The position numbers and the translations under genes are program-made. Shown in pieces: positions 2 through 36,639 of a stretch of DNA of 36,639 nt. Position 1 is the stretch's first letter. Each line of letters starts with the position of its first letter. The stretch covers positions 1-36,639 of the forward strand of contig CACVAW010000020.1 of assembly GCA_902727925.1 (NCBI GenBank), given 5' to 3'. The notes below the pieces were generated by a model. It saw nothing but the letters and a program-made list of their open reading frames with translations. It had not been told where the DNA came from and searched no databases. This DNA is from an uncultured Campylobacterales bacterium. GTDB taxonomy: Bacteria > Campylobacterota > Campylobacteria > Campylobacterales > CACVAW01.

Positions 2-3000
2 CAAGAACTAAAAAAAAGAATAAACAAAAGAAAACAATACGAAAACAAAAAAGAACAAGAAGCAAAACAACAACAAGCCCAAGAAAGAAGGACAGAACAA
101 GAATATAAAGAATACCAAAAAGAAATGGTAAAAAAATACCCAAGTATGTCCAAAGAGAAAAAAGAACAACTACTAGCCGAATATAACCAAAACCAAAAAC
201 TATACCAAGAACACTTAGCACGTCAAAATAGACAAGCCCAACAACAAAAGAGTAGACAAGAACAACAAAGAAGACAAAATTATCAAAATAAGCAACAACA
301 ACAAAAAGCCATGCAAACATATGATAGACTAGAACAAGCAAAAAAATCAAAAAGACCAGAAAAAGAAATAGCAAAAATAGAAAGACAGTACCAAAAAGAG
401 TTAAGAACACACTCTAAAAGTCCATTTAAAAAAACACAAAGATTAGAGTTTGGACAAAAAGAGATAGCAAAAGCAGCAAAAAAAATAGGAGTATCAGAAG
501 AGGGGTTAAACACATATATAACAAAACTAAGAAAAAGAGAAAGTTCAGATAACCAATTTGCAAGAAGATCAGGAAGTCAATACTGGGGATACTGGCAGAT
601 GGGGAAAGGTGCTAGAACAGATGGTGGGTATAGAGGTAGTAATGCAAATGCTTACATGCAAAGTAAAAGTACTCAATTACGGACTTTTTTAAATTACACT
701 GTGAGACAAGCAAAATCTCTAAAGAACAGAAACATATCAACAAAAAATGAAGCACATTTTCTTGGAGTACTAGCAGCAGGACACCTAAAAGGAATAGGTG
801 GAGCTGTAAAGATGCTTAAAGGTCAAGATAATGCAGATGCATTAGGAACTAAAACTAGTGAATATTATAAAATGATTCATAGTGCAGTAAATTCTGAAAA
901 ATCTAATAACCCTGGGGTAATAGCATACAACAAAGGAGTACAAGCATACGTACCAACTTCAAAAGATAGTGTAAATGATGGAAAATACCTAGAATCTAGA
1001 GTATTCTCAAAAACATCACAAGCCCAAAGATTTATAAAAGCAAAATATCCAGAATTAAAATATAAAATAGACTCAGAATATTATGAAAAGACTGGAAAAC
1101 TAGGTGGATATGATCCAAAAACAGGAATAACAACATTTGATGACAAAATAACAAAATATGTAATCCACCATGAAGCAATAACAGCTAAACGTCATAAAGA
1201 AGGTCAAGACTACAGTGAAGAAGCCGTAGCAAAAGAGCTTTATCAAAGAGCAGAAGAACTAAGACTAAATCCATACGAAATAAGAGATTCACAAGATTAT
1301 GTAAAAACTAAAAGATACCTACAAAAAGGTCGTGACGCAGAAATACAAGAGTTAGCAAAACTAACAGGAACAGCAGCACAAAAAGGTTGGATAGGAGATA
1401 CAAGAAGAGTACTAAAAGAGTGGAATGCAAAATATGCACTAGCTGGAGAGTGGGCAGCAGAACAATTAGGGTTTAAAGATGGCTTTCATACTCCAGAAGA
1501 AGAAAAGTATTTTGGATATGTACTTCAAAATATAGAAGACAAAAGAGACAAAAGAAGTAAAAGTGGACTTAGTCTGGAGAGGTTAGCTCAGAGGGAAGCT
1601 TTAGAAAAAAAAGGAGAAGCTGCAGAACAAGAGTATACACAGGCAAAAGGTGTTGTGCAAACTATGTCAGCTATTGGTAGTGTTGTAAAGTCTACAGCTA
1701 ATACTATTGTTGATAGTGCGAAGCATTATGAAGAGTGGACAAGAGAAGGTATTATCTCAGGGGTACTTGCTCCAGAAAACCTTGTTGGTGGAGGTATTGT
1801 AGCTAGGGTTGGAATGACAAGTATAAAAAAAGCTGCTCTTACCAGTACTGTTGTTGATATAGCAGCAGCTTCTGCAATTGAAGGAGGGGCTGCTGAGAAA
1901 AGAGGGAGAAGTGGAGTTGTAGCATCAATTGGTGTGGCAACAGGTTCAGCTCTTATTGGTGGCACAACAGGTGGTGCTGTTGCTGGGTATAATAAAGTTT
2001 CTGGTAGAGGTAATAGAATTACTATAGACAATACTATCAATAAGATAGATGACAAAGACAATCCTTTAAGTCCAGCTGAAAAACAACTTGTATCTGAACT
2101 TACTCAAGATGCTGTTAATACTAGTGATAATAGTATTAGTATGGATTCTGTTAGAAGGGCTACTCAAAACTCTATAAAACCTGATATTAATCAAGATGAA
2201 GAAGAAAGTTCATCTAACCTTGATACTCTTGAATCTGATACTTCTACTTCTTTTATTCCTCAAACCTTGGATAATACTGATAATGTCGTTCCCATTAAAC
2301 AATCAATAACCACTCAGCAACAACAAGCAAGACAACAGGAACAAGCAGCAATAACTTCAGAATATAACTTTATGGAAGTTAGCAACCCAGCATATAATCC
2401 TCTACCAACAAAAGAAGAGTTTGGTTTTGAGAGTATACCTCTTAAGGATAGTGAGTTAACAATACTAGATCCAAATAAAAACACTGATACAACAAATCCT
2501 CTTAGGATATCTAATCCCATAAATGATCCATTACCTAATAATGGGAATCAAACAAAAGATTTTATGAGGATAGAAAATCCAGCTAAAAATTTGGTAGACT
2601 CAGATGCACAAGTAAAAACTGAAAATAAACCTACTCAAGAACCTACCCAGACTCAACAGCAACAAGCTAAACCTCCTAGAAATTTAGATGAAGCTCAGAA
2701 AAGACAACTTGAGCAAGCAAAAGATGCTTCAAATAAGGTAACGTTTAATTTAAAAAAAACAGATGCAATAAAAGAAATAGAGAGTTCTACACATTGGCAT
2801 GGTAACAAACATAGAGGGAAAACCAAAACAGAGTTAAGAGATAGAGCTAGAACTGCTAAGATATCAGGCATAGGTAAAAATACAGGTTCTCTTACTGCAG
2901 GGGTGGATAGCTATAATGAACGAATTGCTTATGCAAAAGCTACTGGACATAAAAAAAGATTGACAAATGCGAGAGAGGCTAAAAGAGATTATTTAGACCA

Positions 3001-5446
3001 ACCTTTGGTTAGAAGTAGTTTTAAAAGTAATAATGAATTATATAAAGCATACTTACTTGTTAGAAATAGTGATGAATTTAAAGCTCAATATAATGAAGGT
3101 AATTCTAATACTATAATAACTTCAGTACCTATAAGCAAAAATATTAAATATCAATCTATAGATCAATTTGGAAATGAACATAATGTAAATAGAGTTATAG
3201 GTGTTTTTCATAGAAATATAGACGGTACAGTATCACCAGTTACCATTTATCCAGCTTATGGGCAAAGAGCGAAGCTGAGAAATTTAACAAAGAAAACTCC
3301 TGCTCAACAGCAACAAGCGAAAACTTCTATTGATAGTCAAGCTCAACAAAGGCAAGCAAGACAAGCTAACCCTAAAACTGATCCTACTAGTCCAGAGTTT
3401 GATCCAGAAGAATTTGTAAAAGGTAGAGCAAGCAAAAAACATGATGAATTAAGAGAAGTTTTAGATGATAGAAAACAAGTTTTAAAAAAAGGTTCAGGCG
3501 GACGGTCAAATAGAGTAACAGAATCAGACCCTCATCTTAAGCTAACAAGAGTTATGAATGAAGCAAGAGAAAGAGAAGCTGGTAAAAAACATTGGCAAAA
3601 AGAGTTAAATGAAAGATTTAATTCAGATGGTACACTAAGAGATGACTATGGTACATCAAGTCCAACTACAACACATAAAGACCGAGTTGATTCACTTTTA
3701 AGTGGAGAAAATTCAGTAAAAGATGAGTCAATTCAAACTAATAAGCCACCTACTAAAAAAACAGTTGATTATAATCAACCAGCTAAAGGGTTGAGTAGTA
3801 GTGTTGGAAGTAGAGGACTGGGTAATAACCCTCTAGCAGATATGAAAGATCTAAAGAATAGACAAAAAGGATTAGATAATATTTTGTCTTCTAAAAATAA
3901 GAAGAATAAAGATGAATCAGGTTCTGTAGGCGCTCAATTTATAGGAAACTCTTGGAAAGATAATCTAAAACAACAAACAAGAGATACAGAAGCTAGAATA
4001 AATCAACAAGGTTTAGATAGTGCAAGAAATAATCCACCTAAAAGCCAAGAAGTTGATAGACCTTTAACATCTGAGGATAGTAGGGGAATAGATAGACAAT
4101 TCTTACTTGGGGATAGCGAGAATCAAGTAAAAACTTCAGTACAACAGCAACAAGCTAAATCAGGTGTAAACGACTATAGAGTTAGTCAAAAGGTAAATGA
4201 ATTTGGTAAAAAACATGGAATAGAAGATTCATTATCTTCACATAGTAATGATTATATATATTCAAGTAAAAATGGAGTAGAAGGTTTTTATAAAGCATCA
4301 GATGATACCGATCCAATTATATTATATCACGGTACTCAAGACAAGTCGTTTAAGAGCTTAAATGATTTAGATTCAAGTTCTAATAGTCCTTTTTTTCTAA
4401 CAAAAGATAAAGAAGTTGCAAAAAGATATTCTTCAGATAATCATTATACACATCCTTCTCAAAGTGAACAAACTGGAAACACTTTAAAAGGTGTATTGGT
4501 AGTTAAAAATACAGAAGCTGTTAGTATTCATAATGCTGAAGGTGGAAGCCAACAAGATATAAATATGAATAATTTCTTAAATTCAGAATATAATCAGTCG
4601 ATTAACGTAAATCAAAATGTCCGTAACATTGGTATAGGTGAAACTACAAATATTACTATTACGCCAAATACACATAAAGATAATTTTTCTATAATAGGTA
4701 TAGGTGACTATAGAGAAAATGGTACAAGACAAAAACTTTATCCAATACAACAGCAACAAGCTAAGGCAGGATTAAATGATTATAGAAATAATGATAATGA
4801 GGGGGTAAGTGAACTAAAAAGTTATCCTCAGTATTTGATTGGGTCAAATACTCCAAACATATCGCAAGGAAGAAATAGGAATCAGTCTTTAATTGTTGAA
4901 TTTAAAAAAGATGAAAAGAGAACTAATGATGATACATATAACGTAAAATCTGGTGATAAAATCATAGGACAGGTTTCATTAAAAAGAAAAAATGATAAAA
5001 GAGTTCATTTAGCAGGTCTTGGGATTGACGATGATTATCGTCATACAGGAGCAGCACAAGCAACTGCTCATAAAGTAAAAAAATATTTAAAAGACAAAGG
5101 TGCAAAGTCTTTATCTATACAAGCTATACCAATGGCAGGAAGTTACGATAAAAATCAAATAGATTCTAACTCTTTAGTAAAACATTATTTAAAAAATTAC
5201 TATGATGTTGAAAATATAGATGAACTAAAGGATGTGAATAAAACTGATCAACAAAAAGTAGATGGGGTTGTGATAACAGGAAGCTTTATATCAGAAGGGA
5301 ATACTATTTTTGGTCACTTAAAAAATGAACGACAAAAATCTAATCAAGATCCTATTAAATCAGCTGCTTTTTTAGATTTTATGAAAGAGGAAGGAATAAG
5401 TTTGGGTAGTAATCATGGTTTTACAGACTATCGAGATGAGACTTAA
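2..5446 (+). CDS. Giant modular polyvalent-type protein (5' partial): lysozyme-like, ADP-ribosyltransferase-like and GNAT-like domains
   Basis: The frame is open from base 2, so the true start lies outside the window; residue numbers here count from the Met at 125. Residues 1-100 are Q/K/E-rich and probably coiled coil. Residues 110-256 look like a lysozyme or lytic transglycosylase: RESSDN with candidate catalytic E139, GYWQMG at 155-160, then AGHLKGIGGA at 218-227. Residues 300-480 are unassigned. Residues 510-625 are hydrophobic with a glycine zipper (GSALIGGTTGGAVAGY). Residues 870-1050 form a basic unassigned domain. Residues 1396-1515 resemble an ADP-ribosyltransferase (LYHGT, then PFFLTKDKEVAKRYS). 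Residues 1586-1700 resemble a GNAT acetyltransferase (GDKIIGQVSL, then YRHTGAAQA). QQQQA(K/R) linkers separate several modules. This layout matches the polyvalent proteins of phages and conjugative elements, which carry effectors into a recipient cell; that role is inferred. There are no phage structural genes nearby to confirm it. Confidence 0.75.
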   Translation, partial: QELKKRINKRKQYENKKEQEAKQQQAQERRTEQEYKEYQKEMVKKYPSMSKEKKEQLLAEYNQNQKLYQEHLARQNRQAQQQKSRQEQQRRQNYQNKQQQQKAMQTYDRLEQAKKSKRPEKEIAKIERQYQKELRTHSKSPFKKTQRLEFGQKEIAKAAKKIGVSEEGLNTYITKLRKRESSDNQFARRSGSQYWGYWQMGKGARTDGGYRGSNANAYMQSKSTQLRTFLNYTVRQAKSLKNRNISTKNEAHFLGVLAAGHLKGIGGAVKMLKGQDNADALGTKTSEYYKMIHSAVNSEKSNNPGVIAYNKGVQAYVPTSKDSVNDGKYLESRVFSKTSQAQRFIKAKYPELKYKIDSEYYEKTGKLGGYDPKTGITTFDDKITKYVIHHEAITAKRHKEGQDYSEEAVAKELYQRAEELRLNPYEIRDSQDYVKTKRYLQKGRDAEIQELAKLTGTAAQKGWIGDTRRVLKEWNAKYALAGEWAAEQLGFKDGFHTPEEEKYFGYVLQNIEDKRDKRSKSGLSLERLAQREALEKKGEAAEQEYTQAKGVVQTMSAIGSVVKSTANTIVDSAKHYEEWTREGIISGVLAPENLVGGGIVARVGMTSIKKAALTSTVVDIAAASAIEGGAAEKRGRSGVVASIGVATGSALIGGTTGGAVAGYNKVSGRGNRITIDNTINKIDDKDNPLSPAEKQLVSELTQDAVNTSDNSISMDSVRRATQNSIKPDINQDEEESSSNLDTLESDTSTSFIPQTLDNTDNVVPIKQSITTQQQQARQQEQAAITSEYNFMEVSNPAYNPLPTKEEFGFESIPLKDSELTILDPNKNTDTTNPLRISNPINDPLPNNGNQTKDFMRIENPAKNLVDSDAQVKTENKPTQEPTQTQQQQAKPPRNLDEAQKRQLEQAKDASNKVTFNLKKTDAIKEIESSTHWHGNKHRGKTKTELRDRARTAKISGIGKNTGSLTAGVDSYNERIAYAKATGHKKRLTNAREAKRDYLDQPLVRSSFKSNNELYKAYLLVRNSDEFKAQYNEGNSNTIITSVPISKNIKYQSIDQFGNEHNVNRVIGVFHRNIDGTVSPVTIYPAYGQRAKLRNLTKKTPAQQQQAKTSIDSQAQQRQARQANPKTDPTSPEFDPEEFVKGRASKKHDELREVLDDRKQVLKKGSGGRSNRVTESDPHLKLTRVMNEAREREAGKKHWQKELNERFNSDGTLRDDYGTSSPTTTHKDRVDSLLSGENSVKDESIQTNKPPTKKTVDYNQPAKGLSSSVGSRGLGNNPLADMKDLKNRQKGLDNILSSKNKKNKDESGSVGAQFIGNSWKDNLKQQTRDTEARINQQGLDSARNNPPKSQEVDRPLTSEDSRGIDRQFLLGDSENQVKTSVQQQQAKSGVNDYRVSQKVNEFGKKHGIEDSLSSHSNDYIYSSKNGVEGFYKASDDTDPIILYHGTQDKSFKSLNDLDSSSNSPFFLTKDKEVAKRYSSDNHYTHPSQSEQTGNTLKGVLVVKNTEAVSIHNAEGGSQQDINMNNFLNSEYNQSINVNQNVRNIGIGETTNITITPNTHKDNFSIIGIGDYRENGTRQKLYPIQQQQAKAGLNDYRNNDNEGVSELKSYPQYLIGSNTPNISQGRNRNQSLIVEFKKDEKRTNDDTYNVKSGDKIIGQVSLKRKNDKRVHLAGLGIDDDYRHTGAAQATAHKVKKYLKDKGAKSLSIQAIPMAGSYDKNQIDSNSLVKHYLKNYYDVENIDELKDVNKTDQQKVDGVVITGSFISEGNTIFGHLKNERQKSNQDPIKSAAFLDFMKEEGISLGSNHGFTDYRDET
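2315..4765 (+). repeat. Dispersed QQQQA(K/R) linker repeats inside the giant gene
   Basis: Five copies of a Gln-rich linker begin at 2315, 2654, 3305, 4142 and 4748. The last four share the identical 14-mer CAACAGCAACAAGC, followed by an in-frame Lys codon; the first is a CAG CAA CAA CAA GCA AGA variant. They fall between the recognisable modules. The last two are followed by similar residues (SGVNDYR and AGLNDYR). A related KQQQAQ occurs near base 63. Repeated short identities at module borders fit recombination-driven domain shuffling, although repeat-prone Gln codons alone could give part of the pattern. Confidence 0.75.
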
Positions 5447-5507
5447 TACTCCACTACTAAAATATTTTTTTGAATTCCTCAACAGAGTTACCCATGCTTT
5501 TTCAGAC

Positions 5508-5529
5508 CTAAGTATATATATACTTTTAG
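5508..5529 (+). terminator. Palindrome after the giant gene, candidate terminator
   Basis: AAGTATATATATACTT (5510-5525) is a perfect 16-base palindrome about 60 bases after the stop of the giant gene. It is followed by TT and flanked by CTA and TTTAG. It could be a weak intrinsic terminator or an operator for the moxR operon. The all-AT stem makes terminator function uncertain. Confidence 0.35.
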
Positions 5530-5579
5530 TATTATGCAAATTCAATACACAAGTTAAAAAACTGTTACTAATGATAAGG

Positions 5580-5585
5580 TATAAT
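5580..5585 (+). promoter_or_regulatory. Candidate -10 box of the moxR operon
   Basis: A perfect TATAAT lies 40 bases before the moxR ATG. No clear -35 hexamer sits at the normal distance, which is usual for sigma-70 promoters in Campylobacterota, where an AT-periodic upstream region replaces it. A GGAG at 5614-5617 is the ribosome binding site. Confidence 0.5.
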
Positions 5586-5625
5586 TTCACCATTATAATT
5601 TGGTTTAAATTTTGGAGTTTATTTG

Positions 5626-6561
5626 ATGGATATAAATTTAATAAAAAAAGAGGTAGGAAAAGTTGTTGTAGGTCAAGAGGAGATGGTAAATGCACTTCTT
5701 GTTGGTCTTATGACAAATTCTCATATTCTTCTTGAGGGTGTTCCTGGACTGGCTAAGACCACTACTGTGAATGCTCTTGCTTCTGTGTTGGGTCTTGACT
5801 TTAAGAGGGTTCAGTTCACTCCTGATTTGCTTCCTAGTGATATTACAGGTGCGCAGATATATAATCCAAAGACAAGTGAGTTTGAACTCAAAAAGGGTCC
5901 TGTGTTTACAAACCTTCTTCTTGCTGATGAGATAAATAGAGCTCCTGCAAAAGTTCAATCTGCACTTCTTGAGGTGATGCAAGAAAAGCAAGTGACTTTA
6001 GGAGTTGAGAGCTTTAAGATTCCAAAGCCGTTTTTGGTTCTTGCTACTCAAAATCCAGTGGAACAAGAGGGTGCTTATACTCTTCCTGAAGCTCAGCTTG
6101 ATAGGTTCATGATGAAAATCAAGATAGACTACAATACAAAAGAAGAAGAGCTTGAAATCATGAGACGAGTTGTGAATATGGCTAGTATAGAACTTAACAA
6201 GGTAGCTTCAAGTAAAGATATAGGACAAATTCAAGAAGATATCAAAAATGTACATATAGACAAAGAAGTAGAAGAGTATATTGTCGATCTTGTATTCGCT
6301 TCAAGGTATCCATCTAAGTACGGACTAGAAGATATCGCTAAGTATATAGAGTATGGTGTAAGTCCGAGAGCTTCTATTGACTTGCACAAGGCTTCAAAAG
6401 CACAAGCTTATCTTGAAGGGAAAGATTTTGTAACTCCTGTAAGTGTACTTAAGGTGTTAAAGCCTATATTTAGACATAGATTAATTCTTACTTATGAAGC
6501 AGATGAGATAGAGGTTGATGATATCATTCAAAGAATAGTGGATGCCATAAAAATACCATGA
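5626..6561 (+). CDS. MoxR-family AAA+ ATPase
   Basis: This is a MoxR-type AAA+ ATPase, thought to act as a chaperone on VWA-domain partner proteins. It has a Walker A (GVPGLAKTT), a Walker B (LLLADEINRAP), and the conserved ATQNPVEQEGAYTLPEAQLDRF stretch containing sensor I and the arginine finger. The lid domain contains GVSPRAS. About 311 residues is the normal family length. The ATG at 5626 is preferred over the TTG just before it because GGAG lies eight bases upstream. Its stop overlaps the next start as ATGA. It is the first gene of a moxR, DUF58, membrane protein, VWA operon, so the encoded VWA protein is its likely client. The specific substrate is unknown. Confidence 0.93.
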   Translation: MDINLIKKEVGKVVVGQEEMVNALLVGLMTNSHILLEGVPGLAKTTTVNALASVLGLDFKRVQFTPDLLPSDITGAQIYNPKTSEFELKKGPVFTNLLLADEINRAPAKVQSALLEVMQEKQVTLGVESFKIPKPFLVLATQNPVEQEGAYTLPEAQLDRFMMKIKIDYNTKEEELEIMRRVVNMASIELNKVASSKDIGQIQEDIKNVHIDKEVEEYIVDLVFASRYPSKYGLEDIAKYIEYGVSPRASIDLHKASKAQAYLEGKDFVTPVSVLKVLKPIFRHRLILTYEADEIEVDDIIQRIVDAIKIP

Positions 6562-12036: not shown

Positions 12037-15000
12037 TCAAGCTTCCACTATCTTTATCTCTTCATCACTCAAGCCATAAAGTTTATAGACCATAGTATCT
12101 ATTTCATCATCTGTTTTATTGATTTGTGATTGTATCTCTAAAGCTTCTTTTTTGTCATTTTCAAAAAGTGCTTCCCAGTCGTTTTTGAAGTTTCGCTCTT
12201 CTAGTTTGTCGGCAAATTTTAGTTTTTTGGCTTTTTTATACACTTTTACAAACTCATCAAATTCTAATTCTTCAAAGCTTTGTAGTTTTTTAGGTATTTT
12301 TTCAAGTTCTAGTTCATTGATAAAGTTTTGTTTTGTTTTTTGTAGATTTTTGTTTAGTTCAAGCATTAAATCTGCTTTTTGAATAAATGGTTCTTGTTCA
12401 CCCAAGTTTTTAAGTTTTGGTAATGGAAAAGGTTCTAAGTATTTAGTTTTAAAATAATAATAACCACCACTAAATTCTGCACTAGTATTTTTAATAAAAA
12501 ACCACATTATAGAAGAGTTTAAAAGAGTTAGAAAATATTTATAGTTTTCTTGAATATTTTCTTTTTTTATTAAATTATATCCACCTGCATCACTATACAT
12601 TTTATGTTCATCAAATGTAAAACTAGGATAATTTTGTAATTGAGGTGTTATAATTTTCAAAGATTCTAATATTGTAATTTCTCTTGACCTATGAAGACTA
12701 TACCAATATTTCTCATTAGTTTTATATTTAATTTTTTTATTAACAAGGCTATCTTTAAAATTCAATAGATACTCATAAGCTAATGGATAATTATCTTTTA
12801 AGTATTCTTCTTCAAAGGGTTTTGTTTTATTATTTTCATTAAGGTAATGAGGGAAAATAATATAAATATTAGTTTGTAAAAAAGTATTTCTTTTAATATT
12901 TTTCCCTTTTAAAATGGGTTTTACAATTGAACTTTCTATTTTTACTTCTTTTTTCAAATCACTTGAATATCCAATAAAAACATTGTCGATAATATTACCC
13001 CTTAACATAAAAATACTATCTCCACAACTTACAATACCTTGGTAAATCCCTTCGAACACATCTTTTACTTTATATACTTGTTGATTTATTTTTTCTAAAA
13101 CTTTTGTAATATTTTGATTGGTTAAATTCCATTTATTAGAAGTTAATTTATCATAAGAAATACTATCATATTCAAAACCATCAAATATATCTTTTGGATT
13201 TATATGTTTGAATTTTAGTTCCTCATTATTGTGCGATAGAGTTATAATACAAGTATAAGTTGAAGCATCTTCAAAAACCATCTCACTACCAAAATGTAAC
13301 AAGTTTTCAACTGCTTTATGCTCAGATAAAAATCCCCTTATACCACTTCCAAAGTCTGATATTAGAAACTTGTGAGGTAAGATATATGACAATTTACCAC
13401 TTTTGTTTAACATATTGAAACTCATCTCTAAGAATAAAACATATAAGTCATATTTACCTGTTGCACTTTCAAACTTTTCTTCATATAGTTTTGATTCATC
13501 TTCATAATTACTTTTGAGTCCCTGCACTCTCACATACGGAGGATTTCCAGCTACTATATCAAAACTACCCTCTTCAAAAGGCATATCAAGTAAAGAGTTC
13601 GCACATAGTATCTTATCTGCTAAGCTTGTGAGTGATCTTCCTTTTTTAGCAGTTCTAAGCCACAAAGAAAGCTTTGCTATCTCCACTGCATCTTCGTTTA
13701 TATCTACCCCGTAGAGGTTGTTTTCTAGTACACTCTGCTCAACTGTATAAGAAGAGAACAAATCCCCCATAAGAGCTAAGTCGTTTTGTAGATTTGTGTG
13801 TTCTGTTATCAGGTAGTCTAAGGCTTGATTTAGAAATGCTCCACTACCACAAGCAGGGTCTAGGATTTTGAGTGCTAAAAGCCACTCTTTGTAAGTCTCA
13901 AGATTGTCTTTTGTTTGTTGTTCTATTTTGTTTAGTTTCTTTGGGTTTTTAGGGGCTACTACCTCTAGGATACTTAACTCTTCTCTTTTTTCAAGACATA
14001 TTTTGGCAAGTGTATTATCTACTATATACTTTGTGATATAAGAAGGTGTATAAAATACTCCATCTTTTTTTCTTTTGGTTTTTGTCTTGTCAAAGCTGAC
14101 ATTATCTATATTGGCTTGAAGTTCTTCTAGGTCTGTTAAGGACTGTTCAAATATATGACCTAAGATATTTACACCTACTTCACTCTCAAAGTCATAATCA
14201 CTTAACTTCTGAGCTTCTATATCTAAGATATCATTATCAATTATCAAGCTATCAAGTTCTTTGTCACTTGAGAATAAACCACCATTATATTTTGGTATTT
14301 TTAGTTTTTCATTTCCTTGATTGATAGCATTGAAGTAGAACTTATATATATCATAGAGTGTATACTCTGAGAATTTCTGGTTTGTAAAATCTTCTCGTAT
14401 TTCTTTAATTGTATTTGAAGTTAATAGTCCTCTATCTTCTGCAAATAGTATGAATATAATCCTATCACATAGCTTTTGAGTGAGTCTTAAGAGTTTTGAT
14501 TTTTCAATATGGGGATTGTTTTGAATTAAGTTTTGAAATAAGTTTGTTCTGAAGTTTGAAAAGTCTTTGTAAAGCTCTTTTGAGATTTGCTGTTCGTGGT
14601 TGTTTGACTTTGCTTTTAGTTGGAGTGGTATATTGTCTTTTATGCTCTCATAAGAAAGTAGTAAATGAAGTTTTTTAAAGTCTTCATAAGTAAGCTCAAA
14701 TAAACTAAACTTTTCATAAGAAGTACTTTTTTCTATGTAAAATCTAAGTTCATTGAAGTTTGAAATGATGACATATTTTGCATTTGAATTTTGATTAAGA
14801 TACCAAAATGCTTGTTCTTGTACATTGTCAAGGTTTTTGGTGTTTTGGGCTTTTAGTTCTATGACACCTACGACCTTATCATCTATATATATAACACCAT
14901 CTGCTTTTTTACTATCAGTTTCGTTTTTTTTCTCTCTTTCTAATGTGTAGTTCTCACTTTTGGTTTTAGAAATATATCCTAAACAATCTTCAAATATATC

Positions 15001-15165
15001 TTGTAAGAACCCATCTTGGTATTCCTCTTCTTTAAAGTCTTTTATACGGTCTATCTTCGCTAAGTATTTTTGATATTTAGGCCATCTTAAATCTATGAGG
15101 GTTTCGTCTTGTTTATTGATATAGTTTTGAAGTATTTTTTTATTGAATATTGGCGTATGGTTCAT
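12037..15165 (-). CDS. Type IIG restriction-modification enzyme (Eco57I-like, single polypeptide)
   Basis: One 1042-residue chain combines nuclease, methyltransferase and target recognition. The N-terminus has a PD-(D/E)xK site (D89, then E103-L-K105 in VIELKAQ). The adenine methyltransferase core has motif I LDPACGSGAF (about residue 435) and motif IV NPPYVRVQ (about 541). The C-terminal 400 residues resemble TaqI-like specificity domains, ending in a charged helical region. Such enzymes methylate DNA using SAM and cut a short distance from an asymmetric site. No separate methylase or specificity gene is nearby. It sits alone after dnaE with a weak ribosome binding site, typical of a horizontally gained defence cassette. 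The target sequence cannot be read by eye. Confidence 0.92.
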   Translation of the reverse strand: MNHTPIFNKKILQNYINKQDETLIDLRWPKYQKYLAKIDRIKDFKEEEYQDGFLQDIFEDCLGYISKTKSENYTLEREKKNETDSKKADGVIYIDDKVVGVIELKAQNTKNLDNVQEQAFWYLNQNSNAKYVIISNFNELRFYIEKSTSYEKFSLFELTYEDFKKLHLLLSYESIKDNIPLQLKAKSNNHEQQISKELYKDFSNFRTNLFQNLIQNNPHIEKSKLLRLTQKLCDRIIFILFAEDRGLLTSNTIKEIREDFTNQKFSEYTLYDIYKFYFNAINQGNEKLKIPKYNGGLFSSDKELDSLIIDNDILDIEAQKLSDYDFESEVGVNILGHIFEQSLTDLEELQANIDNVSFDKTKTKRKKDGVFYTPSYITKYIVDNTLAKICLEKREELSILEVVAPKNPKKLNKIEQQTKDNLETYKEWLLALKILDPACGSGAFLNQALDYLITEHTNLQNDLALMGDLFSSYTVEQSVLENNLYGVDINEDAVEIAKLSLWLRTAKKGRSLTSLADKILCANSLLDMPFEEGSFDIVAGNPPYVRVQGLKSNYEDESKLYEEKFESATGKYDLYVLFLEMSFNMLNKSGKLSYILPHKFLISDFGSGIRGFLSEHKAVENLLHFGSEMVFEDASTYTCIITLSHNNEELKFKHINPKDIFDGFEYDSISYDKLTSNKWNLTNQNITKVLEKINQQVYKVKDVFEGIYQGIVSCGDSIFMLRGNIIDNVFIGYSSDLKKEVKIESSIVKPILKGKNIKRNTFLQTNIYIIFPHYLNENNKTKPFEEEYLKDNYPLAYEYLLNFKDSLVNKKIKYKTNEKYWYSLHRSREITILESLKIITPQLQNYPSFTFDEHKMYSDAGGYNLIKKENIQENYKYFLTLLNSSIMWFFIKNTSAEFSGGYYYFKTKYLEPFPLPKLKNLGEQEPFIQKADLMLELNKNLQKTKQNFINELELEKIPKKLQSFEELEFDEFVKVYKKAKKLKFADKLEERNFKNDWEALFENDKKEALEIQSQINKTDDEIDTMVYKLYGLSDEEIKIVEA

Positions 15166-35671: not shown

Positions 35672-36205
35672 TTACTTTGCTACTGAAACCATTGCGGCTC
35701 TTAACACTCTATCTTTTATTTTATATCCCTTTTGTAGGACTTGTACTATTTCGCCACTCTTCTTATCTTCACTTTCAACCTTTATCACAGCTTCGTGAAA
35801 ATTGGGATCAAATTCACCTTCACACTCTATTTCAGTAATACCAGCTCTCTCAAAGACCTTGTTAAACTGATCAACAGTAATATTAATACCATTTTTCAAA
35901 TCTTCCAAGCTAATTTCTTCATTTTTGATAGAAAGGTCAAGAGAATCAATCACACTTAACAAATCCCTAGCAAAGCTTTGAGTCGCATACGCAATAGAAT
36001 CAGCTTTTTGCTTTTCTAACCTTCTTTGCATATTAACAAACTCTGCATTTGCACGAAGAAACTTCTCTTCAAGTTCTTTATTCTTTGCTTTAAGTTCTTC
36101 TATAGACTCAGTAACACTTTCTTTTTCATCAGAATTTTCTATGTTTTCGTCTACATTATCATCAATATAAGATTGCTTCAGATCATCTATATTTTCTTCA
36201 TCCAT
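35672..36205 (-). CDS. grpE: Nucleotide exchange factor GrpE
   Basis: This is the nucleotide exchange factor of DnaK, 177 residues. An acidic N-terminal tail is followed by a coiled coil (ELKAKNKELEEKFLRANAEF), the AEFVNMQRRLEKQK signature, FARDLLSVIDSLDLS, and the beta domain GEFDPNFHEAV...VLQKGYKIKDRVLRAAMV. ATG 36205 follows AGGAG. Upstream lies a strong sigma-70 promoter. In many Campylobacterota hrcA directly precedes grpE; no hrcA is found in the 211 bases before the next gene. Confidence 0.97.
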   Translation of the reverse strand: MDEENIDDLKQSYIDDNVDENIENSDEKESVTESIEELKAKNKELEEKFLRANAEFVNMQRRLEKQKADSIAYATQSFARDLLSVIDSLDLSIKNEEISLEDLKNGINITVDQFNKVFERAGITEIECEGEFDPNFHEAVIKVESEDKKSGEIVQVLQKGYKIKDRVLRAAMVSVAK

Positions 36206-36243
36206 TTAGACTCCTAAATAAAAACATTATTTTTATGTTTGGA

Positions 36244-36272
36244 ATAATATAAAAAAAAATCTTTTTTGTCAA
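36244..36272 (-). promoter_or_regulatory. Near-consensus sigma-70 promoter of grpE-dnaK
   Basis: On the minus strand a perfect TTGACA (36272-36267) is followed, after exactly 17 bases, by TATTAT (36249-36244). This is unusually close to the E. coli consensus for a low-GC Campylobacterota genome. The transcript would begin about 30 bases upstream of the grpE ATG. No CIRCE inverted repeat is recognised here. Confidence 0.7.
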
Positions 36273-36276
36273 GACT

Positions 36277-36322
36277 TTAGTTTAGTGTATTTTGTATAGA
36301 TTAGTTTAGTCTTATGGACTAA
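36277..36322. repeat. Direct and inverted repeats in the grpE upstream region
   Basis: TTAGTTTAGT occurs at 36277-36286 and again at 36301-36310, 24 bases apart start to start. The second copy runs into an inverted repeat TTAGTC / GACTAA (36306-36311 and 36317-36322) around TTATG. The pair stands between two divergent promoters, so it could be an operator for either one, or a junction relic of an inserted element. Confidence 0.5.
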
Positions 36323-36370
36323 CATTATGAAGGCGATAGAATATAGTTTTAATTTACATATAATATATGA

Positions 36371-36376
36371 TATAAT
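36371..36376 (+). promoter_or_regulatory. Candidate -10 box of the right-edge gene
   Basis: A TATAAT with an AT-rich upstream region lies about 40 bases before the ATG at 36417. A very strong purine-rich ribosome binding site (AGAGGGGG) follows at about 36404. Confidence 0.5.
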
Positions 36377-36416
36377 AAATGTAGATACATTTCATAAGAA
36401 AGAAGAGGGGGCAAAG

Positions 36417-36639
36417 ATGTTAACACTACTATTACTGTTAGCAGGAGGAGCGTTAGCATCAGGATTTTTTGGTAAATTCCTAAGTCCAGATGGGATGGGC
36501 AAAGTAGGTGTTGAACAAGAAGAGCCAGAAATAAATGAAGAAGAATTATTATACAACATGGGAGACCAAGCATCAGAGTCACAAAACGATGATGTCTTTG
36601 CTAATACAGAGGAACTAAGTGAAGAAGAAAAACAAGACT
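36417..36639 (+). CDS. N-terminus of an unknown membrane/acidic protein (3' partial), possible second giant polyvalent-type gene
   Basis: The frame is open to the window end: 74 codons and one base. ATG 36417 is preceded by AGAGGGGG, the strongest ribosome binding site in the window. A hydrophobic, glycine-rich N-terminus (MLTLLLLLAGGALASGFFGKF) is followed by a strongly acidic region rich in Glu, Asn and Gln. No family is recognised. Codon choice (TTA, CTA, ACA, GGA, ATA) resembles the first 1.5 kb of the left-edge giant gene rather than its chromosomal neighbours. It could be the start of a homologous gene. The first segment could be a signal peptide or a membrane anchor. Confidence 0.6.
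   Translation, partial: MLTLLLLLAGGALASGFFGKFLSPDGMGKVGVEQEEPEINEEELLYNMGDQASESQNDDVFANTEELSEEEKQD

What the first reader, a model, noticed from the sequence alone, without database searches (positions are those of the whole stretch)
36417..36639. Both contig ends lie in similar plus-strand genes: a possible multi-copy family
The right edge starts a gene with a hydrophobic anchor and an acidic, E/Q-rich region, in codon style like the left-edge gene. Contigs often break inside repeated conserved segments. If N-termini are conserved between copies and C-termini vary, as in polymorphic effectors, a contig would end exactly like this on both sides of a housekeeping block.
Basis: inference. Interest (0 to 1): 0.55.

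Follow-up and report, generated by a model that had tools for sequence, protein, structure and literature searches.

The report
Repeated giant mosaic phage-like effector genes
Both ends of this DNA piece cut through copies of one family of giant, multi-part genes whose beginnings are nearly the same and whose ends carry different enzyme-like parts, which suggests a set of interchangeable weapons related to phage proteins.

Summary
The finding holds up. The window is contig C20 of a 1.50 Mb, 69-contig genome. Its right edge starts a gene whose first 74 residues are identical on contig C28, despite four (synonymous) base changes. Both contigs stop at the same base and share their last 127 bases: an assembly fork at a repeat. 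A third copy, on contig C2, matches the right edge at its N-terminus and the left edge further in (88% DNA), so both window edges belong to one family.

Further on, the copies are mosaic. One slot holds an SLT transglycosylase (C2) or a tail-lysozyme-like domain (window). The tails differ: a partial zeta-toxin-like domain (C2); ART-PolyVal-like (weak) and GNAT domains (window), set off by QQQQA linkers. A middle segment is homologous to a prophage giant protein. The C2 copy is broken by an insertion sequence.

Best reading: chromosomal, multi-copy relatives of phage 'polyvalent proteins', diversified by cassette exchange. Delivery and target are unknown: three marker families of delivery machines were not found, and I saw no adjacent immunity gene. 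Family-specific parts found only one convincing relative (the middle segment, in G113) among 397 other same-order genomes.

The parts
36417..36639 (+). N-terminus of family copy B: hydrophobic anchor, then acidic region; runs off the contig
   Evidence: 74/74 aa identical to C28:223-2(-), 48/71 aligned residues identical to the C2 gene; terminal 127 bases shared with C28L
36400..36416 (+). shared ribosome-binding-like stretch; the match to C28 begins here
   Evidence: (match starts at query base 401 = window 36400) and alignment
2..5446 (+). family copy A, C-terminal 1814 residues of a giant gene, 5' cut by the contig end
2..304 (+). conserved Q/K/E-rich stalk block, same as C2 residues 222-322
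   Evidence: 88% DNA; 79% aa over 222-322; 80/97 aa; dN 0.086, dS 0.445
650..967 (+). tail-lysozyme-like domain, roughly in the slot where the C2 copy has an SLT transglycosylase
   Evidence: phrog_27932 E 2.5e-6; tblastn to annotated tail lysozymes of Sinorhizobium phage phiM9 (33%, 4e-4) and Ochrobactrum phage ORM_20 (29%, 1e-4)
1547..1831 (+). middle segment homologous to the N-terminal part of a prophage giant protein (G113:C10)
   Evidence: 29% over 102 columns, E 2e-7; the C2 copy matches the same place independently (E 5e-7, E 3.8e-9)
2060..2216 (+). second conserved block between copies (83% DNA)
   Evidence: dN 0.154, dS 0.414
2315..2653 (+). module 1 after a QQQQAR linker, no family match
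2654..3304 (+). module 2 after a QQQQAK linker, only sub-threshold family matches
3305..4141 (+). module 3 after a QQQQAK linker, no family match
4142..4747 (+). module 4 after a QQQQAK linker; ART-PolyVal-like (about 4310-4510)
   Evidence: PF18760 E 2.2e-5, 25.7 bits against a cut-off of 31.2, profile positions 5-62 of 140; not listed when the whole protein was scanned
4748..5443 (+). module 5 after a QQQQAK linker; GNAT acetyltransferase (about 4898-5119)
   Evidence: PF00583 E 2.4e-8, above cut-off; also in the whole protein, E 4.1e-7
5417..5443 (+). C-terminal end with the motif GFxDYRDE, also at the end of the fragment on contig C25
5623..6561 (+). MoxR-type ATPase gene, 176 bases after the giant gene's stop
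35672..36205 (-). grpE, divergent upstream neighbour of the right-edge copy
   Evidence: PF01025 E 2.4e-49

Best explanation
A family of giant chromosomal genes related to, and probably descended from, phage (or plasmid) polyvalent proteins, with three N-termini seen beside three different housekeeping genes. Each codes one long protein in a fixed order: membrane anchor, acidic and Q-rich stalk, peptidoglycan-cutting domain, a middle segment shared with a prophage giant protein, then payload domains, in the window gene joined by QQQQA[KR] linkers. SHOWN: the repetition, the assembly fork, conserved 5' blocks with exchanged domains, dN below dS on the shared parts, homology of the middle segment to a prophage protein, family-level matches for SLT and GNAT (whole protein) and zeta (segment only). 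INFERRED: that new payload sets arise by recombination at shared blocks and linkers; that the anchored protein opens peptidoglycan and passes payload domains into another cell or against an invading element, where they modify proteins or nucleotides; and that the host keeps them as weapons or anti-invader factors.
For: Multi-copy. Identical 74-aa N-terminus with 4 of 4 changed codons synonymous; dN/dS about 0.31 (N-terminus against C2), 0.19 (block 1), 0.37 (block 2). Exchanged domains: SLT PF01464 E 1.2e-21 in C2 against tail-lysozyme-like in the window; Zeta_toxin PF06414 E 2.2e-6, above cut-off, in the C2 tail given alone, against ART-PolyVal-like and GNAT in the window. Linkers: QQQQA[KR] 5 times and [DN]YR 5 times in residues 741-1814, 0 of 2000 shuffles reaching either count (motifs chosen after looking). 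Phage kinship: both paralogues match the same part of a 1746-aa prophage-like protein of a same-order genome, which carries PBECR3 (above cut-off), PBECR2 (below) and a virion-RNA-polymerase-like stretch and resembles proteins of four phage records with host Helicobacter pullorum. A host-genome context without element genes is described for polyvalent proteins (PMC5512222 sections 6 and 32).
Against: No activity, expression or delivery is shown. ART-PolyVal is below its cut-off and covers less than half its profile; zeta covers positions 5-103 of 199 and is cut short by an insertion sequence; neither was listed when the whole proteins were scanned at E up to 1. NCBIfam gives the C2 tail only weak FlhF/FtsY-type matches, so 'a P-loop domain' is the safe part. 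Modules 1-3, C41 and C25 have no convincing family match. By the 19-residue hydropathy scan only C2 has a borderline hydrophobic stretch in the middle segment, the window gene none. The C2 copy is interrupted, so it is probably not made whole. VipB, CagE_TrbE_VirB and Phage_sheath_1 were not found. What follows the N-termini of copies B and C is not in the held contigs. AlphaFold models of two window segments were unusable.
Confidence: 0.52

Rival explanations
1. Decaying remnants of integrated phages: only the large virion ejection protein gene has survived at each site, without a function for the host.
For: Phage-like SLT/tail-lysozyme and middle segment; insertion sequence in the C2 copy; no convincing N-terminal relative in 397 other same-order genomes.
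Against: dN below dS on the shared parts, and 4 of 4 changed codons synonymous between two loci. The window copy is open for 1814 residues. I saw no phage gene beside the five flanks held (by listing and Pfam of the nearest genes, not of every frame).
Confidence: 0.2
2. Companion proteins of a mobilizable or conjugative element in the same genome, carried into the recipient with the DNA.
For: Contig C27 carries a relaxase and a T4SS coupling protein (PF03432 E 8.9e-11, PF02534 E 2.3e-49); C55 has a similar coupling-protein frame by eye. Conjugative elements are the largest reported home of polyvalent proteins (PMC5512222 section 6).
Against: No VirB4-type match by PF03135 in the genome (one family only). 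At the five flanks held, the neighbours are grpE, a SpoU-type methylase, an HMGL-like gene, moxR and tex, not mobility genes.
Confidence: 0.15
3. A classical polymorphic toxin system: a dedicated secretion apparatus exports it and a downstream immunity gene protects the producer.
For: Constant N-terminal part with variable C-terminal enzyme-like domains.
Against: At neither of the two 3' ends held is there a likely immunity gene: moxR starts 176 bases after the window gene's stop (only mechanical frames overlapping other genes lie there, such as 5415-5735), and C25 is followed by a convergent tex. No T6SS sheath by PF05943. No Pfam match in the N-terminal parts.
Confidence: 0.1

Closest known systems
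Polyvalent proteins of phages and conjugative elements (Iyer et al. 2017, PMC5512222)
   Same: Giant multi-domain proteins that combine unrelated enzymes (peptidoglycan cutting, GNAT, ART-like, zeta-like) in one chain; middle segment homologous to a prophage giant protein; a stand-alone host-genome context is described there too.
   Different: Here one family in several chromosomal copies shares an anchored N-terminus, an acidic stalk and a C-terminal end motif, with repeated QQQQA[KR] linkers in the window gene. I did not see that arrangement in the sections read (abstract, 6, 10, 32, 34, passages).
MuF polymorphic toxins (PMC5576092, passages read)
   Same: Phage-linked, constant N-terminal part with variable toxic C-terminus.
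   Different: No MuF match in the window, C2, C41 and C25 proteins, and no phage genes seen beside the flanks held.
Internal virion/ejection proteins and tail lysozymes of tailed phages
   Same: The SLT region of C2 matches phrog_2013, 669 and 342; the window copy matches a baseplate hub/tail lysozyme family.
   Different: No other virion genes seen beside the copies; the payload modules did not match those families.

Membership tests
Polyvalent proteins | two or more domains of unrelated biochemical activity in one polypeptide | tested here: met
   tail-lysozyme-like + GNAT (+ ART-like) in the window gene; SLT + partial zeta in C2, zeta only when its segment is scanned alone
Polyvalent proteins | carries a domain type named for this class (ART-PolyVal, PBECR and so on) | tested here: inconclusive
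   ART-PolyVal PF18760 at E 2.2e-5 but 25.7 bits against a cut-off of 31.2, segment only
Polyvalent proteins | encoded in a phage, prophage or conjugative element, or in a host genome and related to such a version | tested here: met
   host-genome context only: five flanking genes are housekeeping types; the middle segment is homologous to a prophage giant protein
Polyvalent proteins | delivered with parasite DNA early in infection | not testable with these tools
   needs experiment
Polymorphic toxin systems | constant N-terminal region with variable C-terminal toxin domain | tested here: met
   that the C-terminal domains are toxic is not tested
Polymorphic toxin systems | known trafficking domain or secretion system | tested here: not met
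   no such domain in Pfam or NCBIfam scans; VipB, CagE_TrbE_VirB and Phage_sheath_1 not found in the genome, the controls ringing in 1, 1 and 3 of 14 genomes; other systems not tested
Polymorphic toxin systems | adjacent immunity gene | tested here: not met
   0 of the 2 3' ends held (window 5446, C25:895) shows a likely one
MuF toxins | MuF domain | tested here: not met
   no MuF match in the window, C2, C41 and C25 proteins

The most novel reading that the evidence does not exclude
A bacterium has turned captured phage ejection proteins into its own dispersed, self-diversifying effector repertoire: several chromosomal loci keep the same anchored 5' part while payload cassettes are swapped through a recurring QQQQA linker whose DNA word is nearly the same at each joint, without any neighbouring mobile element, dedicated secretion system or immunity gene.
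Probability: 0.35. Interest if true: 0.7.

Novelty: new variant of a known kind. Interest (0 to 1): 0.5.

Why it matters
If the reading is right, polyvalent proteins are not only cargo of phages and plasmids but can be multiplied and reshuffled by a host genome, and the linker-bounded modules without a convincing database match (window modules 1-3, and the repeated unit on C41) are candidates for new enzyme families. Practically, such families are easily lost from fragmented genomes: here contigs break inside them and what follows the two identical N-termini is not among the held contigs.

Tried and rejected
Circular replicon: the window's right end could lead into its own left end; the fork with C28 and the housekeeping content argue against a plasmid, but no test excludes it. 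Match of window 5435-5465 to C67: about 30 bases beside a transposase-like remnant (by eye); not counted as a copy. SLT-only hits: the 80 listed of 212 viral stretches, the hits in 88 of the 99 other genomes, two genome-contig loci and the 15 listed of 445 plasmid records all lie in or around the SLT domain of the C2 protein and say nothing about the family; the unlisted rows I did not see. G294 (E 5.8e-4) lies in the Q/K/E-rich stretch and I treat it as chance. The C45 hit I take for an ordinary cellular transglycosylase, untested. Viral scans with alignment A1, window 494-1501, 2714-3424, 4190-4813 and the G113 segment confirmed no relative. P0002 in plasmids: no match; C2 residues 506-1211 in phages: no match. 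PADLOC: only a weak BrxF match to C41, not followed. Two single-sequence AlphaFold jobs gave mean pLDDT 46 and 34, so no fold search was made. PDB sequence search with module 4: nothing (best E 0.26). Rfam: no match in the window.

Full report
What the window is. It is contig C20 of a genome of 1,504,492 bases in 69 contigs (completeness 99.2, contamination 1.8). G+C is about 29% in the left parts held. The 99 relatives listed share only its order. The window's glutamine synthetase scores far best against chain 5zli (672 bits, next 482), which I recall to be from Helicobacter pylori; I take the genome as campylobacterotal, by inference.

The right edge is a repeat. DNA of window 36000-36639 finds C28:1-240 (98%, E 5.7e-117) and C2 (82%, E 2.2e-35, and a second piece) besides itself (40 of 85 first-look candidates were scored). 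As protein, 74 of 74 residues equal C28 and 70% equal C2. C28 ends at exactly the base where the window ends, and the two contig ends share their last 127 bases. Among 138 contig ends (8 belong to four all-N contigs and are set aside) 11 pairs share a terminal 127-mer and none 141, which fits an assembly word of 127. The match starts 17 bases before the ATG. The upstream neighbours differ: grpE here, a SpoU-type methylase at C28, an HMGL-like gene at C2.

The left edge belongs to the same family. The C2 gene (1211 residues) matches the right edge with its residues 1-71 and the left edge with 222-384 and 759-1001; in DNA, window 1-306 matches at 88% and 2060-2216 at 83% (40 of 173 candidates scored). 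Thus one gene bridges both window ends. The window begins inside the conserved block, but no held contig shares its exact terminus, so the left break is explained by inference only. The smallest contig is 2531 bases, so short collapsed repeat pieces may have been filtered out.

Fixed and variable parts. Window right edge against C28: 4 changed codons, all synonymous. Against C2: dN 0.21, dS 0.69 (12 synonymous, 23 other changed codons); block 1 dN 0.086, dS 0.445 (11, 17); block 2 dN 0.154, dS 0.414 (4, 14). dN is below dS each time, but the stretches are short and the values rough. Between the blocks the copies differ. C2 has SLT (PF01464, E 1.2e-21); the window gene has a tail-lysozyme-like domain at about the same place (phrog_27932, E 2.5e-6; phage phiM9 tail lysozyme, 33% over residues 176-296, E 4e-4; three records in all). 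After block 2, C2 leads into a zeta-toxin-like domain (PF06414, E 2.2e-6, above cut-off, first half of the profile only), the window gene into five modules, of which module 4 is ART-PolyVal-like (E 2.2e-5, below cut-off) and module 5 GNAT (E 2.4e-8). Zeta and ART appear only when the segment is scanned alone; in whole-protein scans at E up to 1 they are not listed. The five modules of the window gene are each introduced by QQQQA[KR], a motif chosen after looking, absent from 2000 shuffles; C2 has QQQQAQ before its zeta-like part. The 5' parts have an A-rich codon style (0.63-0.87 A at four-fold sites), which drops at about codon 525 in the window gene and 375 in C2; later stretches vary between 0.13 and 0.57, against 0.22-0.47 in nine other window genes. 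I read the drop as a seam.

The C2 copy is broken. At the end of the C2 reading frame an insertion sequence with 16-base inverted ends begins. The same ends bound contig C41 on both sides, and lie at C25L, C36R and C26L. C41 carries 1230 residues with a unit that starts three times (residues 504, 784, 1128; 29-35 of 50 residues identical pairwise). C25 carries about 266 residues ending in GFDDYRDEDI, like the window gene's GFTDYRDET, and resembles a part of C41 (24% over 217, E 6e-13 without composition correction; E 1.2e-7). The four bases beside the element match between C2 and C41 (chance about 0.007 per pair; 7 of 15 pairs match, 6 of these because four ends have the same bases, so the C41-C25 match does not discriminate). 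I infer that C2, C41 and C25 are one gene of about 2,700 residues cut by two insertions. The pieces were not joined.

Phage kinship. Among 398 same-order genomes, this one included, drawn evenly from a larger group and with at most six candidates scored per genome, the middle segment of C2 has one relative besides its own genome: a 1746-residue protein in G113 (E 3.8e-9), in a stretch that by eye also holds portal-like and lysozyme-like frames. Both family copies match its residues 47-149 independently. That protein carries PBECR3 (above cut-off), PBECR2 (below) and a virion-RNA-polymerase-like stretch, and resembles proteins of nine phage records, four with host Helicobacter pullorum. The N-terminal query found only a weak hit, G294, in the same kind of draw of 398 genomes. 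Elsewhere the listed rows are SLT relatives or, for the window gene, three tail-lysozyme records.

Delivery and protection. VipB, CagE_TrbE_VirB and Phage_sheath_1 were not found in the genome; their controls rang in 1, 1 and 3 of 14 genomes. These are single-family tests. I see no likely immunity gene after the two 3' ends held: moxR follows after 176 bases, tex converges on the C25 fragment. The 74-residue N-terminus and C2 residues 1-351 have no Pfam match at E 0.01. A relaxase and coupling protein lie on contig C27.

Literature. PMC5512222 (abstract, sections 6, 10, 32, 34 and passages) defines polyvalent proteins, describes a third context, host genomes without element genes, with a suggested defensive use, and for Verrucomicrobium spinosum cassette-like clusters. 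PMC5576092 (passages) describes MuF toxins. In five searches (only the listed titles and abstract starts seen, 10 of 1,304 in the last) I saw no report of a multi-copy chromosomal polyvalent family like this; that is a statement about those listings only.

Verdict. I file the family as works-like, and probably derived from, polyvalent proteins: a new variant, because of the multi-copy anchored architecture. On the tests made it is not a classical polymorphic toxin system.

Noticed in passing
window 12037-15165: Eco57I/MmeI-type restriction-modification methylase with TaqI-like specificity domain, next to a DNA polymerase III alpha gene.
   Followed up: no
G000:C27 (L155) and C55 (L182): Relaxase, T4SS coupling protein and a DnaJ-like frame on C27, with a similar coupling-protein frame on C55 by eye: perhaps a mobilizable element in two versions.
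   Followed up: partly
contig ends C2L, C25L, C36R, C41L, C41R, C26L: One insertion-sequence family with 16-base inverted ends lies at six contig ends, with a partial match at C64R.
   Followed up: partly
G000:C41 (L168:136-3828): A 1230-residue frame with a unit starting 'TVGAAWN' three times, kinase-like by eye, no Pfam match above cut-off.
   Followed up: partly
G000:C25 (L153:3033-5070): RloB-like protein beside an AAA-type ATPase, close to the C25 giant-gene fragment and tex: a possible defence pair.
   Followed up: partly
C3R, C33L, C40L, C62R: Ig-like repeat proteins at contig ends by eye, apparently a second repetitive gene family.
   Followed up: no
G113:C10 (L251:8238-13478): Prophage-like giant protein with PBECR2/PBECR3 and virion-RNA-polymerase-like parts, similar to proteins of Helicobacter pullorum phage records.
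   Followed up: partly
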